A program made the translations under genes and the position numbers. A stretch of DNA of 64,000 nt from Dioscorea cayenensis subsp. rotundata (taxonomy: Eukaryota > Streptophyta > Magnoliopsida > Dioscoreales > Dioscoreaceae). Positions 2,488 to 58,331 of this stretch are shown piece by piece; the first letter of the stretch is position 1, and each line of letters starts with the position of its first letter. The notes below the pieces were generated by a model, which did no database searches, had not been told where the DNA came from, and saw nothing but the letters and a program-made list of their open reading frames with translations. The stretch spans positions 806,001 to 870,000 of the forward strand of contig NC_052494.1 of the NCBI RefSeq assembly GCF_009730915.1, written 5' to 3'.

Positions 2488-3487
2488 NNNNNNNNNNNNN
2501 NNNNNNNNNNNNNNNNNNNNNNNNNNNNNNNNNNNNNNNNNNNNNNNNNNNNNNNNNNNNNNNNNNNNNNNNNNNNNNNNNNNNNNNNNNNNNNNNNNNN
2601 NNNNNNNNNNNNNNNNNNNNNNNNNNNNNNNNNNNNNNNNNNNNNNNNNNNNNNNNNNNNNNNNNNNNNNNNNNNNNNNNNNNNNNNNNNNNNNNNNNNN
2701 NNNNNNNNNNNNNNNNNNNNNNNNNNNNNNNNNNNNNNNNNNNNNNNNNNNNNNNNNNNNNNNNNNNNNNNNNNNNNNNNNNNNNNNNNNNNNNNNNNNN
2801 NNNNNNNNNNNNNNNNNNNNNNNNNNNNNNNNNNNNNNNNNNNNNNNNNNNNNNNNNNNNNNNNNNNNNNNNNNNNNNNNNNNNNNNNNNNNNNNNNNNN
2901 NNNNNNNNNNNNNNNNNNNNNNNNNNNNNNNNNNNNNNNNNNNNNNNNNNNNNNNNNNNNNNNNNNNNNNNNNNNNNNNNNNNNNNNNNNNNNNNNNNNN
3001 NNNNNNNNNNNNNNNNNNNNNNNNNNNNNNNNNNNNNNNNNNNNNNNNNNNNNNNNNNNNNNNNNNNNNNNNNNNNNNNNNNNNNNNNNNNNNNNNNNNN
3101 NNNNNNNNNNNNNNNNNNNNNNNNNNNNNNNNNNNNNNNNNNNNNNNNNNNNNNNNNNNNNNNNNNNNNNNNNNNNNNNNNNNNNNNNNNNNNNNNNNNN
3201 NNNNNNNNNNNNNNNNNNNNNNNNNNNNNNNNNNNNNNNNNNNNNNNNNNNNNNNNNNNNNNNNNNNNNNNNNNNNNNNNNNNNNNNNNNNNNNNNNNNN
3301 NNNNNNNNNNNNNNNNNNNNNNNNNNNNNNNNNNNNNNNNNNNNNNNNNNNNNNNNNNNNNNNNNNNNNNNNNNNNNNNNNNNNNNNNNNNNNNNNNNNN
3401 NNNNNNNNNNNNNNNNNNNNNNNNNNNNNNNNNNNNNNNNNNNNNNNNNNNNNNNNNNNNNNNNNNNNNNNNNNNNNNNNNNNNNNN
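2488..3487. other. Assembly gap (1000 N)
   Basis: A run of exactly 1000 N interrupts the last visible CNGC4 exon. Reading frames that run through it are artefacts. Confidence 1.
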
Positions 3488-7842: not shown

Positions 7843-8842
7843 NNNNNNNNNNNNNNNNNNNNNNNNNNNNNNNNNNNNNNNNNNNNNNNNNNNNNNNNNN
7901 NNNNNNNNNNNNNNNNNNNNNNNNNNNNNNNNNNNNNNNNNNNNNNNNNNNNNNNNNNNNNNNNNNNNNNNNNNNNNNNNNNNNNNNNNNNNNNNNNNNN
8001 NNNNNNNNNNNNNNNNNNNNNNNNNNNNNNNNNNNNNNNNNNNNNNNNNNNNNNNNNNNNNNNNNNNNNNNNNNNNNNNNNNNNNNNNNNNNNNNNNNNN
8101 NNNNNNNNNNNNNNNNNNNNNNNNNNNNNNNNNNNNNNNNNNNNNNNNNNNNNNNNNNNNNNNNNNNNNNNNNNNNNNNNNNNNNNNNNNNNNNNNNNNN
8201 NNNNNNNNNNNNNNNNNNNNNNNNNNNNNNNNNNNNNNNNNNNNNNNNNNNNNNNNNNNNNNNNNNNNNNNNNNNNNNNNNNNNNNNNNNNNNNNNNNNN
8301 NNNNNNNNNNNNNNNNNNNNNNNNNNNNNNNNNNNNNNNNNNNNNNNNNNNNNNNNNNNNNNNNNNNNNNNNNNNNNNNNNNNNNNNNNNNNNNNNNNNN
8401 NNNNNNNNNNNNNNNNNNNNNNNNNNNNNNNNNNNNNNNNNNNNNNNNNNNNNNNNNNNNNNNNNNNNNNNNNNNNNNNNNNNNNNNNNNNNNNNNNNNN
8501 NNNNNNNNNNNNNNNNNNNNNNNNNNNNNNNNNNNNNNNNNNNNNNNNNNNNNNNNNNNNNNNNNNNNNNNNNNNNNNNNNNNNNNNNNNNNNNNNNNNN
8601 NNNNNNNNNNNNNNNNNNNNNNNNNNNNNNNNNNNNNNNNNNNNNNNNNNNNNNNNNNNNNNNNNNNNNNNNNNNNNNNNNNNNNNNNNNNNNNNNNNNN
8701 NNNNNNNNNNNNNNNNNNNNNNNNNNNNNNNNNNNNNNNNNNNNNNNNNNNNNNNNNNNNNNNNNNNNNNNNNNNNNNNNNNNNNNNNNNNNNNNNNNNN
8801 NNNNNNNNNNNNNNNNNNNNNNNNNNNNNNNNNNNNNNNNNN
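7843..8842. other. Assembly gap (1000 N)
   Basis: A run of exactly 1000 N upstream of the CLE gene. Frames read through it in any orientation are artefacts. A (TA)n tract at about 7754-7777 lies shortly before it. Confidence 1.
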
Positions 8843-22760: not shown

Positions 22761-25700
22761 CTAAATGTCAAGAGCTCCACATGGTTTGCTCTGAAAACTT
22801 GAAGCTTTGTTGTGTTCTTCATCCTTTGCATTGTTCCGGCCTCTACTCCGACCAATGCCTAGTTTTGGTAGACCTCGATTTAGTCCGTCGAGCAATACAC
22901 ACGCTTTACACAACTTCTGCAAACAATATTCATTAACCACTCAGAATCATCGCCAAAAATTAAACATTTAACAATGGATTGAAACACTTCTAAGACATGT
23001 ATGATACAATCAGAGAGGTCACTAACATGATTACATTTCATTCATTGCATTGATAATTTCTAAAGACTAACAGTAAAACGAAGTAAAAGAACTCTTGTAG
23101 TAATTATGGCAAGCATGGCTTAAAGTAATATAGGATTATTTGGGATTACCTGGCTTGAAATATAACCACATCGTTCACATGTTCCTTGCTCTGGCATTTT
23201 TGTTGATGAAGATATCCTGAAATTTTCTCCTGATCTGATGATATCTAGAATGGCCCTTGGTCTGCAGCAATATATTCAGAATCTCAGATTAACATGCCTT
23301 TCGAGAGTCTTTAACTGCAAAAGCTTTGCATTTGTGAAAAATAAATAAATACTGGTATAGATGAAAATGTTTACCTGATCCTCTCCAAATCTTTAATAAA
23401 TTCCCGAGCAAAAGCCTCGGTATGCATTTGGAGAATAAATACCTGCGATCGCACTAAATATTCAATCACTGGGGAAAAAAATTAACAATTCTCTTGACAT
23501 AGAAACAAGAAGAGAATACTACAATGTAGTGCTTTCATTAGTTCATAGTGTGAAGAAGCTATTTCTCAAGATAGATAAATAATTATTAAGGACATTAATC
23601 AAACTGAAACTATCTACTACCAAAACATCAATGGTACTTTGACGTTGGACGTTTGAACACATGAATGCTCCATCCACATGGGAATCCCATTTTAAATATA
23701 TACGGCAAATTCTTTTTTTCCCAATTTATCCAAAATAACTAAACGAGGTCATAACAAATTTCAATTGTTAAAAAAAAACAGCTAACCGTATAGCATGTAT
23801 AGCATATTACTTTAGTAAAAAAAGAGTAAAGCTTACATTCTGTCGAGAAGTAGTCCAGCTTCTTAAAATATGCATACGTATAAATCCGTCAAGGTTTTGC
23901 AAATTCAATGATTATAAATAAAAGGAAATTTGCGCATATATATATACCCCTAAAAGTGCATAATTGCATATATACTCCCATAATTTTTTTTTGTGTATAT
24001 ACCCCTACAAAACATGAACATTGCATATAATCCCCATCAAAAAAACCTCACCATTTCACTCTAACCTCAATGGCCAAATGTCACATACTAATAGAGAAGT
24101 GATGCTAAAAAGGGTATTTTCAAAAAAAATAAAAAAATTAACAGTTGGCTTTTGAACACATAGGTGTATATACACAAATATTGGTGTTTACTAGGGTTAA
24201 ATATTGCAAATATAATTCTTATTTGTTAGGGGTGCATATGCAACTTTCTAAGAAATAAGTAGCATTAATGTCAAGGATATATAACAATCTCCTTCTCATA
24301 TGTGTATTTGAATGGCTTGCACCTCGGAATAGGTCCATCTTCACCAGTGGTTATAAAAGTACATCTACTCAATCTACAAAATAAGATGAAAAATATTTAA
24401 TAAACAAAATAAGAGAAATGCAAATAGGAGGAGGATAACAAGACATTTGGATCCCATACCTTGCTATATCACCCCTTAATATGTTCAAGAGAATGGTTTC
24501 TGCCATATCATCAGCATTATGTCCAGTAACAAGTTTCTCTGCTTTCATAACTGCAGCACCTCGATCTAATGCCTAAGATAATCAAGTGAAAAATAAAAAT
24601 AATGTATACATAACTCAATGCAAACCATTGGCCTAAAAAGAAGCTGTTTTGTAGGACAAAGCTTCATCATGGTTGATCATACATAAACGAAGAGATGACA
24701 TACCTGCCGGCGGAAAACCCCACAGAAGGTACAGTTATTTTTTAAGCCAATTGCTTTCACAATTTCATCCATTGTCCAGCCATACATGGTCTTGTATGAA
24801 ACTATTTTTAGTGGCAATCCATACTACAAAAGATGAGTTAAATTAGAATGGCACTATGTAAAATTCATCAAAGCATGACTGTATGAGGTGAACACAAAAG
24901 CAACATTCGAGTCACAGTTCAGGGAAATGATTGATAAACAATGTAAAAAAAAAAAAATTACAGAACATAACCAAGCAAGGGATTGGACCAGAGCATTTGT
25001 CATCATTTAAAACCAATCTTTTTTTTATTTTGATTCACAAGTGAAAAGTGCATAAAGACAGACATCTATCTACATGGTCATCTTCCATCAAAAATCATTT
25101 GAAAGTTTGTCAAAACTAGATATCAACCTACATCATGGCCATGAACCAACCCACCTGGATTTCATTTCTTTTGACAGTTTCAAGTGAATCATCTCTATAA
25201 CCAGTAATGCCTTCATCGACAGACAAAAGGAAGAGATCAAGCCCATAATTGTGCCTCCTATTGAGTTCTGATAATACATAAGCTAGGACAGTTGAATCTG
25301 CAACAGAAAACCAACAAGAGCAAACAAGTCATCCTCAGAAAGTTTCTAATGTTAACCAGCATAAGCTCCATTATCATCAACCATACTGCCAATCCCATTT
25401 CATTAAAGAAAATGAAAAAGAGCAATGAATTTAAATTGTTCATCAAATAAAAGCATTTCATCAATGAACATCATAATCATTTACCTTTCCCTCCAGAAGC
25501 CCCGATAGCAACCCGTTCTCCAGGCTTAAACAAATGGTTATCGACAATAGTTCTATGTATCTCATCCTCAAATACAGTATAAAAGCACTCCCTGCAAATC
25601 TACACCAATCGAGTACTACCAAGATCAGTGATTAGCTAGATTTGGACTAAACATTTTTAAATCATTTCATACCTACAGAAAAAGTAATACTTGAGTCAGT

Positions 25701-26063
25701 GATTTGCTAGCTTTAAATTATGAACTTTTCAATATTTTTTTACAAATTTGTGCAAACATAACTCAAATTATACACTAAAAGAACAAGCAAATTGCAAAGC
25801 TATACAGACAAATACCACTGAAATCAGCAATTTGCTAACTTTGGACTACGAACTTTCGATTATTTTTATTACAATTTAGTTAAAGCACAAAGCAAATCAC
25901 ACTATAAAGGGACAAATTTGAACGAATAAAACATAGAAAAAATCATAATAGAAATCACCTGCTCTAGGGTTTTGGGCCGTTTGAGGGCGGCCTTCCTCTC
26001 GTTACAGATGGAGCAGACACGACCTGCGCCTCTCCTAGACTTCTTCTCATCACTGTCCTCCAT
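22761..26063 (-). CDS. CTU1: Cytoplasmic tRNA 2-thiolation protein 1 (CTU1/NCS6/ROL5)
   Basis: ATP-pyrophosphatase-type enzyme that, with CTU2, 2-thiolates wobble uridine of cytosolic tRNAs using sulfur from URM1. Ten exons: 25959-26063, 25485-25599, 25155-25297, 24704-24823, 24460-24572, 24281-24373, 23837-23877, 23375-23442, 23150-23261, 22761-22916; about 354 aa, the family's length. Seen: N-terminal CxxC pairs (CSIC, CREC), the PP-loop SGGKDS across exons 2/3 (residues about 70-75), [40 protein letters not shown], and C-terminal CERCGY and KLCKACVLL zinc motifs. Exons 6 and 7 join only through an AT-AC intron (23878-24280). Exon 8 (23375-23442) has one base too many: four A at 23410-23413 on the plus strand where three fit RGFAREF. 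All other phases agree. Confidence 0.94.
23878..24280 (-). other. Probable U12-type AT-AC intron of CTU1
   Basis: On the minus strand the exon ends GAG ATT GTT AT, followed by the donor ATATCCTTGAC. The intron ends AACCTTGAC ggatttatAC, followed by exon G TAT GCA TAT. This joins to give EKEIVMYAYF, the conserved CTU1 sequence, including Met rebuilt as AT+G. No AG acceptor exists near the exon start. ATATCCTT, a CCTTRAC branch site 11 nt from the end, and a terminal AC are the hallmarks of minor-spliceosome AT-AC introns. Confidence 0.88.
23923..24256. mobile_element. MITE-like insertion inside the AT-AC intron
   Basis: About 330 bp. The left end (ggaaatttgcgcatat...acccctaa) and the right end read on the minus strand (agaaagttgcatatgcacccctaac) are imperfect inverted repeats. 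Without it the intron would be about 70 bp. No transposase ORF. The target duplication is not clear. Confidence 0.55.
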
Positions 26064-36500: not shown

Positions 36501-37435
36501 TTGGAATACTTACTCTGCAGTGGCAATCATGAGCGAGACTGGCCTGGGACAGGATCGTTTTACGGTAATATGGATTCAGGAGGTGAATGCGGAGTTATAG
36601 CAGAAACTATGTTTTTTGTCCCTGCTGATAACAGAGCTAAGTTCTGGTATAAGACAAAAGAGACAGATAGCATTACATTTTACTTTTATCGGCTCCATGT
36701 TTAGAGTATAATATATATATATATATATATATCATTACTTCACAGGTACAAGACAGATTATGGAATGTTTAGATTCTGTATAGCAGACACAGAGCATGAT
36801 TGGAGACCAGGGACCGAGCAATATAAATTCATTGAACATTGTCTAGCATCTGTTGACAGAAGAAAGCAACCATGGCTCATCTTTCTTGCTCATCGAGTTC
36901 TTGGTTACTCCTCTGATTACTCTTATGCTGTCGAAGGATCCTTTGAAGAGCCAATGGGAAGAGAGAGTCTTCAAAAACTTTGGCAGAAGTATAAAGTGGA
37001 CATTGCATTCTATGGTCATGCACACAACTATGAAAGAACCTGTCCAGTGTACCAGGTAAAAGAAAAACAAAAACTGGAAACTTAAAATTTCTCAGTTGGA
37101 AAGTTTTTGATCGTTGAGATTGATTGCAGAATACGTGCGTCCGCAATGCATCCAATCTCTATACTGGACCATTTGCAGCGACAACACATGTTGTTGTTGG
37201 TGGTGCAGGAGCTAGTCTTTCTGGTTTTACTACGCTAAGAACTCATTGGAGTTATTTTCAGGACTTTGATCACGGTTTTGCTAAACTAACAGCATTTAAT
37301 CATTCAACATTGTTGTTTGAGTACAAGAAAAGCAGTGATGGAAAGGTCTATGATCATTTCATCATAGCTCGTGATTACCGTGACATTTTAGCATGTGCTT
37401 TTGATAGTTGTGAAAGAACTACATTAGCTACTTGA
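33598..37435 (+). CDS. Purple acid phosphatase 1 of a tandem pair (PAP1/24/27 subfamily)
   Basis: Secreted or vacuolar metallophosphatase. Twelve exons, all in phase, 610 aa: 33598-33762, 34134-34225, 34463-34529, 34615-34737, 35161-35253, 35472-35601, 35830-35911, 36028-36160, 36235-36440, 36521-36646, 36746-37055, 37130-37435. Signal peptide MVFYLLILLGITSSLFSF, fibronectin-like N-domain (DDWIGVFSPANF, VTWTSGYSIDEA), then the catalytic domain with all five metal blocks: GDMGK (about 290), GDICY (about 332), GNHERD (about 365), LAHRVLGYSS (about 453), GHAHNYERTCP (about 496). Family members in databases are often labelled 'probable inactive', yet the seven ligands appear present. Intron 1 begins AAG/gcactc, a GC-AG intron. 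AtPAP27 (611 aa) is the closest relative I can name. Confidence 0.95.
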
Positions 37436-42900: not shown

Positions 42901-44107
42901 GTTTTCTTTTTTAATCAGGCAGAAGCTGATGGTTCCAATGAGTTTAATGACTTTCAGCCTGCCTCTCTTAATACCACAAACCAGCTAATCAAGGACTTGG
43001 AAAACATCGATCTAGTTCTTCATATCGGAGATTTATGTTATGCAAATGGATACATATCACAGTGGGATCAATTCACTGCACAAATCGAACCCATTGCTTC
43101 AACTGTGCCTTATATGGTTGGAAGGTTAGTAGTATATAAACATATATTTCGATGTTCACATTAATCTTGCAAATAAAACTTTTGGAATACTAATCCTACA
43201 GTGGCAACCATGAGCGAGACTGGCCTGGGACAGGATCATTTTACGGGAATATGGATTCTGGAGGAGAATGCGGAGTTCTAGCAGAAACTATGTTTTATGT
43301 CCCAGCTGATAACAGAGCTAAGTTCTGGTATATAATGAAAGAGACAGATAGCACTACAATTGACTTTTATCGGCTCCGTCTTTAGAGTGATACATATAAT
43401 GCTTTATTTCGCAGGTATAAGACGGATTATGGAATGTTTAGATTCTGTATAGCAGACACAGAGCATGATTGGAGGCCGGGGACCGAGCAATACAAATTCA
43501 TTGAACATTGTCTAGCTTCTGTTGACAGAAGAAAGCAACCATGGCTCATCTTTCTCGCTCATCGAGTTCTTGGTTACTCTTCTGGTTCTTTTTACGGTAT
43601 CAAAGGATCCTTTGAAGAGCCTATGGGAAGAGAGAGTCTTCAAGAACTTTGGCAGAAGTATAAAGTGGACATTGCATTCTATGGTCATGTACACAACTAT
43701 GAAAGAACTTGTCCAGTGTACCAGGTAAAAAAAAAAAATTTAAAAAAATGAAAACTTAATTTCTTGGTTGGAAGTATGTTAATTGTTCAGATTGATTGCA
43801 GAATACGTGCATGCGCAATGCGTCCAATCTCTATACTGGACCATTTGCAGCGACGACACATGTTGTCGTCGGTGGTGGAGGAGCTAGTCTTGCTGAATTT
43901 ACTAAGCTAAGGACTCACTGGAGTTATTTTCAGGACTTCGATTACGGTTTTGGTAAACTAACAACATTCAATCATTCGACTTTGTTGTTTGAGTACAAGA
44001 AAAGCAGTGATGGAAAGGTCTATGATCATTTCATCATAACTCGTGATTACCGCGACATTTTAGCATGTGCTTTTGATAGTTGTGAAAGAACTACGTTGGC
44101 TACTTGA
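39922..44107 (+). CDS. Purple acid phosphatase 2 of a tandem pair (PAP1/24/27 subfamily)
   Basis: Paralogue of the gene at 33598 with the same twelve-exon plan, 610 aa, all phases intact: 39922-40086, 41176-41267, 41420-41486, 41572-41694, 41862-41954, 42140-42269, 42500-42581, 42714-42846, 42919-43124, 43202-43327, 43415-43724, 43802-44107. Metal blocks GDMGK, GDLCY, GNHERD, LAHRVLGYSS and GHVHNYERTCP are kept (VH instead of AH in the last). Signal peptide MVFYLLIILGITSSLFGF. Intron 1 again starts AAG/gcactc (GC-AG) and holds a LINE fragment in the opposite orientation, enlarging it to about 1.09 kb. Most differences from copy 1 are conservative, so both are likely functional. Confidence 0.95.
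40234..40248. repeat. Target-site duplication, left
   Basis: cttttagaatgtatt, identical to 41001-41015, directly left of the LINE's T-run. Confidence 0.9.
40249..41000 (-). mobile_element. 5'-truncated LINE (non-LTR retrotransposon), RNase H end
   Basis: About 750 bp inserted antisense in phosphatase 2 intron 1, flanked by a perfect 15-bp target duplication, cttttagaatgtatt, at 40234-40248 and 41001-41015; copy 1 has the empty site. On the minus strand the element ends with a short A-run after ctctttccccaaaa. It carries an open frame of about 200 codons (to 40397) resembling the C-terminal RNase H-like region of plant LINEs (GKLGFFVSNHSN, FPAESCSVAGIMALGIAV, near-terminal GRDLPQWLMK). The open frame and perfect target duplication indicate a recent insertion. 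Confidence 0.88.
41001..41015. repeat. Target-site duplication, right
   Basis: cttttagaatgtatt, identical to 40234-40248; beyond it the intron continues as in phosphatase 1 (agagatggat). Confidence 0.9.
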
Positions 44108-56956: not shown

Positions 56957-58331
56957 GATGAAAATTCAACAAAATCAAATATAAATCATGTAAAAAAATA
57001 ATAACCATTATCTTAGTTTCAAAAAATAAATAGGGCATAGAAATATGAGTTTATNNNNNNNNNNNNNNNNNNNNNNNNNNNNNNNNNNNNNNNNNNNNNN
57101 NNNNNNNNNNNNNNNNNNNNNNNNNNNNNNNNNNNNNNNNNNNNNNNNNNNNNNNNNNNNNNNNNNNNNNNNNNNNNNNNNNNNNNNNNNNNNNNNNNNN
57201 NNNNNNNNNNNNNNNNNNNNNNNNNNNNNNNNNNNNNNNNNNNNNNNNNNNNNNNNNNNNNNNNNNNNNNNNNNNNNNNNNNNNNNNNNNNNNNNNNNNN
57301 NNNNNNNNNNNNNNNNNNNNNNNNNNNNNNNNNNNNNNNNNNNNNNNNNNNNNNNNNNNNNNNNNNNNNNNNNNNNNNNNNNNNNNNNNNNNNNNNNNNN
57401 NNNNNNNNNNNNNNNNNNNNNNNNNNNNNNNNNNNNNNNNNNNNNNNNNNNNNNNNNNNNNNNNNNNNNNNNNNNNNNNNNNNNNNNNNNNNNNNNNNNN
57501 NNNNNNNNNNNNNNNNNNNNNNNNNNNNNNNNNNNNNNNNNNNNNNNNNNNNNNNNNNNNNNNNNNNNNNNNNNNNNNNNNNNNNNNNNNNNNNNNNNNN
57601 NNNNNNNNNNNNNNNNNNNNNNNNNNNNNNNNNNNNNNNNNNNNNNNNNNNNNNNNNNNNNNNNNNNNNNNNNNNNNNNNNNNNNNNNNNNNNNNNNNNN
57701 NNNNNNNNNNNNNNNNNNNNNNNNNNNNNNNNNNNNNNNNNNNNNNNNNNNNNNNNNNNNNNNNNNNNNNNNNNNNNNNNNNNNNNNNNNNNNNNNNNNN
57801 NNNNNNNNNNNNNNNNNNNNNNNNNNNNNNNNNNNNNNNNNNNNNNNNNNNNNNNNNNNNNNNNNNNNNNNNNNNNNNNNNNNNNNNNNNNNNNNNNNNN
57901 NNNNNNNNNNNNNNNNNNNNNNNNNNNNNNNNNNNNNNNNNNNNNNNNNNNNNNNNNNNNNNNNNNNNNNNNNNNNNNNNNNNNNNNNNNNNNNNNNNNN
58001 NNNNNNNNNNNNNNNNNNNNNNNNNNNNNNNNNNNNNNNNNNNNNNNNNNNNNNAAATGAAAAATATATTTATAATTGAATAAAATAGAGCCACTTAATC
58101 CAAAAAAATTTTCTTATGCTCAAAATAATATATATATATATATATAATGCTTATATAAGTGATGAAATCAACAAAATCAAATATAAATCATGTAAAAATA
58201 ATAATAAGCATTGTATTAGTTTTAATAAATAAATAAGGGATAGAAATACAAGTTTATAAAAATGAAAAATATATTTGGAATTGAATAAAAAGAGCCACTT
58301 AATCCATTTTTTTTCTTATGCTCAAAATTAA
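56957..58331. repeat. Direct repeat of about 165 bp, first copy split by the gap
   Basis: The copy at 58164-58331 (aatcaacaaaatcaaatata... to tcttatgctcaaaatt) is matched by 56957-57054 up to the gap and 58055-58125 after it. In the intact copy, the two parts touching the gap are only about two bases apart. Confidence 0.85.
57055..58054. other. Assembly gap (1000 N)
   Basis: Exactly 1000 N, placed inside one copy of a short direct repeat. Frames through it are artefacts. Confidence 1.

What the first reader, a model, noticed from the sequence alone, without database searches (positions are those of the whole stretch)
23878..24280. U12-type AT-AC intron in CTU1
On the minus strand the donor is AT/ATATCCTTGAC, the branch-like element is AACCTTGAC 11 nt from the end, and the intron ends in AC. 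Splicing there rebuilds a Met codon and gives the conserved KEIVMYAYFKK. No AG acceptor is available near the exon. AT-AC introns are a small minority even among U12 introns; one in a tRNA-thiolation enzyme would make CTU1 expression depend on the minor spliceosome.
Basis: partly seen in the sequence, partly recalled or inferred. Interest (0 to 1): 0.8.

Follow-up and report, generated by a model that had tools for sequence, protein, structure and literature searches.

The report
AT-AC minor-spliceosome intron in plant CTU1
A plant gene for a tRNA-modifying enzyme appears to contain one intron of the rare AT-AC type, which needs the cell's secondary splicing machine; the reading looks sound, but such introns are a known and ordinary part of plant genomes.

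Summary
The minus strand 26063-22761 encodes a plant-like CTU1/NCS6 (tRNA U34 2-thiolation enzyme) in ten exons. Eight of nine introns are GT-AG; intron 6 is exactly 24280-23878 (403 nt, phase 2). Its donor ATATCCTT equals the published AT-AC consensus, and the A of the branch-like AACCTTGAC lies 11 nt before a terminal AC. The YAYFKK frame is open only 11 nt upstream of exon 7, with no AG there. Of ten frame-keeping splice pairs enumerated, only this one rebuilds KEIVMYAYFKK, and two homologous proteins of known structure (NcsA, TtuA) align across the joint without a gap. Chance of both signals at fixed ends is about 4e-6, with thresholds chosen after the fact. An in-frame GT-AG pair exists but would delete seven residues.

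No RNA evidence or plant comparison was obtained; the genome search did not complete. No listed paper ties CTU1 to U12 splicing, but the listings were capped and key papers are not held. AT-AC introns are 13-26% of U12 introns in four plants: a new member of a known kind. The assembled gene also carries a single-base frameshift in exon 8. Interest low to moderate.

The parts
22761..26063 (-). CTU1/NCS6 (cytosolic tRNA 2-thiolation protein 1) gene, ATG to stop, 10 coding exons
   Evidence: Exon model; NcsA/TtuA homology, PF01171, C-terminal zn-ribbon_14 PF16503
24281..24373 (-). exon 6, ends ...KEIV + AT of the Met codon
23878..24280 (-). intron 6, AT-AC, 403 nt, phase 2, U12-type
24272..24280 (-). 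5' splice site ATATCCTTG (8 of 9 to RTATCCTTT; +1 to +8 identical to published ATATCCTT; C at +5)
   Evidence: consensus from a passage of PMC2831892
23888..23896 (-). branch-site-like AACCTTGAC (7 of 9 to TTCCTTRAC), A 11 nt before the intron end
   Evidence: optimum 11-13 nt in a passage of PMC3584512
23878..23879 (-). 3' terminal AC
23837..23877 (-). exon 7 (41 nt), G of the Met codon then [13 protein letters not shown]
23375..23442 (-). exon 8, carries a single-base frameshift: SPNAYRGF and [11 protein letters not shown] lie in different frames

Best explanation
A genuine U12-type intron of the AT-AC subtype in a plant CTU1 gene. U11 would recognise ATATCCTT, U12 the AACCTTGAC element, and the U4atac/U6atac.U5 machinery would join AT to G across a 403-nt intron to make the Met codon of KEIVMYAYFKK. 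Shown here: gene, borders, motifs, frame, homology across the joint. Inferred: actual splicing, use of the minor spliceosome, and dependence of CTU1 on it. If the intron is retained, translation runs IYP and stops.
For: Frame and homology place the joint. The donor equals the published AT-AC consensus ATATCCTT and has C at +5, whereas the sodium-channel AT-AC introns of the U2 class all have G at +5 (PMC2831892 passages). The branch A lies 11 nt from the end, optimum 11-13 (PMC3584512 passage). Joint chance about 4e-6. None of the other eight introns of the gene scores high for both signals: best donor 7 of 9 with branch 5 of 9 (intron 7), best branch 6 of 9 with donor 3-5 of 9 (introns 3, 4, 5).
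Against: No transcript and no second genome compared. The branch motif is 7 of 9, AA in place of the consensus TT. Both motifs occur by chance in this AT-rich sequence, and the same relaxed scan of the window lists many unrelated donor-branch pairs. The weak pyrimidine tract does not discriminate: 45% here, but 50% in introns 1, 7, 8 and 9. A frameshift in exon 8 leaves open that this copy is decaying or mis-assembled.
Confidence: 0.93

Rival explanations
1. A U2-type GT-AG intron 24285-23862: donor GTTATATAT five bases upstream, acceptor TTTTAAG inside exon 7, giving KEI|KLDYF without VMYAYFK (or, with the acceptor three bases on, without VMYAYFKK).
For: Both keep the frame.
Against: It deletes seven or eight residues that are aligned without a gap in the four alignments printed of seven PDB hits; these four are two distinct proteins, NcsA (6scy) and TtuA PH0300. 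The donor GTTATA is poor for U1 (recalled consensus), and the U12 signals would be left unexplained.
Confidence: 0.03
2. An AT-AC intron removed by the major (U2) spliceosome.
For: Such introns exist (human SCN4A intron 21; PMC2831892 passage).
Against: The sodium-channel cases have G at +5; here +5 is C, with a full U12 donor and a U12-like branch site.
Confidence: 0.02
3. The copy is decaying or mis-assembled, so that its splice signals may be relics (compatible with the intron being of U12 type by origin).
For: Single-base frameshift in exon 8; the record holds three runs of 1000 N.
Against: The other exons, all splice sites and the zinc ribbon read intact; a lone change in a short T run is a common sequence error (general knowledge).
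Confidence: 0.12

Closest known systems
U12-type AT-AC introns (minor spliceosome)
   Same: ATATCCTT donor, CCTTRAC branch core, AC end, 11-nt spacing, phase other than 0
   Different: First two branch positions AA instead of TT; donor +9 G instead of T (full 9-mers recalled)
U12 intron of plant CBP20
   Same: A minor intron in a plant RNA-metabolism gene (PMC5932401, abstract in search listing)
   Different: A different gene; its conservation across land plants is reported there, and was not testable here for CTU1
Arabidopsis ROL5 (CTU1, AT2G44270)
   Same: Same enzyme family; the CTU1 homologue required for tRNA thiolation (PMC4014090 passages) and immunity (PMC10863982 abstract in listing, passages)
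   Different: Its intron types were not stated in what I saw

Membership tests
U12-type AT-AC intron | 5' splice site ATATCCTT at +1 to +8 | tested here: met
   8 of 8 (consensus)
U12-type AT-AC intron | Branch site (T)TCCTTRAC | tested here: met
   CCTTGAC core intact; 7 of 9 of the full motif, the two leading T are A
U12-type AT-AC intron | Short branch-to-end distance, optimum 11-13 nt | tested here: met
   11 nt after the A (optimum)
U12-type AT-AC intron | AC terminus fitting the reading frame | tested here: met
   Only pair of the ten frame-keeping pairs that restores KEIVMYAYFKK; a second AT-AC pair keeps the frame but puts IWIYT in place of M
U12-type AT-AC intron | Lacks a distinct polypyrimidine tract | tested here: inconclusive
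   45% pyrimidine, lowest of nine introns, but four others have 50%
U12-type AT-AC intron | Removal depends on U11/U12/U4atac/U6atac | not testable with these tools
   No RNA or mutant data
U12-type AT-AC intron | Minor snRNA genes in the same genome | not tested
   The genome search with RF00619 did not complete; Rfam scan of the window alone gave 0 matches
CTU1/NCS6 | PP-loop SGGKDS ATPase domain and C-terminal zinc ribbon | tested here: met
   PF01171 above its cut-off, PF16503 above its cut-off; best NCBIfam match NcsA NF047749, E 1.6e-39, but 135.9 bits against a curated cut-off of 500 for the 243-aa piece given

The most novel reading that the evidence does not exclude
The AT-AC intron is kept in CTU1 across plants because it works as a switch: minor-spliceosome activity, and in particular the AT-AC-specific DROL1/CENATAC branch, sets CTU1 level and so tRNA U34 thiolation and codon-specific translation.
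Probability: 0.08. Interest if true: 0.55.

Novelty: new member of a known kind. Interest (0 to 1): 0.22.

Why it matters
If spliced as read, CTU1 is one of the few plant genes whose protein needs the AT-AC branch of the minor spliceosome, giving one candidate link between minor-splicing mutants and tRNA-thiolation phenotypes. Practically, gene finders that allow only GT-AG would be expected to mis-annotate exon 7 of this gene (inference).

Tried and rejected
Other pairings around the joint: six types of terminal pairs were enumerated; ten pairs keep the frame, and the nine others lose or add residues. The intron as a copy of a mobile element: imperfect inverted repeats lie inside it, but blastn at E up to 0.01 matched nothing in the window except the intron itself; left open. 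Relatives: one scan of genome contigs (single protein query) gave six bacterial loci from 21 candidate stretches, whose matches end at query residue 228 or earlier and so do not reach the joint; one scan of viral contigs gave two candidate stretches and no relative.

Literature: eight searches, listings capped (20 of 42 papers; 20 of 329; 40 of 138; 25 of 217; 20 of 190; 4 of 4; 15 of 77; 10 of 53). No listed paper shows CTU1, NCS6, ROL5 or At2g44270 together with a U12 or minor-intron term; one review (PMC11765398) holds 'thiolation' once and minor-intron terms a few times and was not opened. At2g44270 is in four papers: passages of two, and passages of a third found through ROL5, say nothing of intron type as far as shown (in one search, 12 of 23 places were shown); the fourth was not opened. 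Passages of PMC4892727 gave nothing on CTU1. Suzuki 2022 on DROL1 and Zhu and Brendel 2003, the likeliest to list it, are not held, and supplements could not be read, so absence from print is not claimed.

Full report
What is there. The minus strand from 26063 to 22761 holds a CTU1/NCS6 gene. Joining ten exons gives a protein with SGGKDS and several CxxC pairs. Exons 1-7 (243 aa) match archaeal NcsA (6scy, E 3.8e-34, residues 33-240) and TtuA (5mko, residues 13-240) among seven PDB hits, and Pfam PF01171. The C-terminal piece carries zn-ribbon_14 (PF16503, E 7.2e-19). Plant origin is inferred from the neighbours: of nine other ORFs scanned, seven had a Pfam match (ureide permease twice, Metallophos twice, topoisomerase-related domains twice, MRS2-like once) and two had none. 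It is not shown by a database match, and the species is unknown.

Intron 6. Eight of nine introns are GT-AG. Intron 6 runs 24280-23878, 403 nt, phase 2, beginning ATATCCTTG and ending ATAC. PMC2831892 (passage) gives the AT-AC class as ATATCCTT at +1 to +8, TCCTTAAC at the branch, and AC. The donor is identical over all eight positions. The branch element is AACCTTGAC: the CCTTGAC core fits, the two leading T of the recalled 9-mer are A. The A lies 11 nt from the intron end; PMC3584512 (passage) gives an optimum of 11-13 nt. In a crude 9-mer count none of the other eight introns is high for both signals; intron 7 has 7 of 9 for the donor but 5 of 9 for a branch site.

Why the borders are forced. 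Reading upstream from YAYFKK, the frame is open for 11 nt before exon 7 and has no AG; the only AC ends there lie 10 and 0 nt before it. The nearest AG upstream is 72 nt away, beyond the in-frame stop. Six types of terminal pairs were tried over 26 donor and 36 acceptor positions; ten pairs keep the frame, and only 24280/23878 gives KEIVMYAYFKK. Two GT-AG pairs with acceptors inside exon 7 keep the frame but lose VMYAYFK or VMYAYFKK. In the four alignments printed (two distinct proteins, NcsA and TtuA; seven hits in all) that segment is present without a gap.

Chance. Each motif by itself is no more frequent than shuffles of the window predict, and a relaxed scan of both strands lists many unrelated pairs. 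The evidence is positional. With a first-order model of this gene's pooled introns (intron 6 included), a donor of at least 8/9 at one fixed place has probability 6.3e-4, and a branch motif of at least 7/9 with the CCTT core before one fixed end 6.4e-3, about 4e-6 together if independent. The thresholds were set after seeing the site, so this is a guide only.

Context in print. AT-AC introns are 23, 26, 13 and 22% of U12-type introns in Glycine, Arabidopsis, Zea and Oryza (PMC7367187 Table 2, passage), and 0.06% of splice sites on average in a survey of 121 plant genomes (PMC6310983, passages including the abstract). Minor introns are biased away from phase 0 (PMC10639083 passages); this one is phase 2. 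It lies at 65% of the coding length, in the 3' half, the less usual side: 68 of 182 Arabidopsis U12 introns lie there (PMC2426677 passage). AT-AC introns have dedicated factors: DROL1 in Arabidopsis, orthologue of TXNL4B, and CENATAC for AT-AN introns (PMC11039992 passage). In Arabidopsis ROL5 (CTU1) is needed for tRNA thiolation (PMC4014090 passages) and immunity (PMC10863982, abstract in listing, passages).

Mechanism. Most likely the minor spliceosome removes the intron, and the AT-AC branch of that machinery is needed. Retention would add IYP and a stop. That CTU1 output depends on minor splicing is a consequence if splicing is as read, not a finding; regulation through it is speculation.

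Against. No RNA, no plant comparison, and a frameshift in exon 8 as assembled: SPNAYRGF and [11 protein letters not shown] lie in different frames. Sequence error, broken allele or decay cannot be told apart here. The record holds three runs of exactly 1000 N, scaffold gaps or masking.

Verdict. Whether CTU1 is already in the U12 databases could not be checked; I think it likely for annotated plants (opinion).

Noticed in passing
window 23375-23442 (-): Exon 8 of CTU1 has a single-base frameshift relative to the family reading; as assembled, the protein would stop shortly after SPNAYRGF.
   Followed up: partly
window 23941-24243: Imperfect inverted and direct repeats (for example arms 23990-24007 / 24161-24178, 94%) inside the AT-AC intron, perhaps MITE-like; no second copy in the window.
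   Followed up: partly
window 36705-37082 and 43386-43748 (+): Two Metallophos (purple-acid-phosphatase-like) exons about 6.7 kb apart whose translations look nearly the same by eye, probably a tandem duplicate.
   Followed up: no
window 2488-3487, 7843-8842, 57055-58054: Three N runs of exactly 1000 bases: scaffold gaps of set size, or masking.
   Followed up: no
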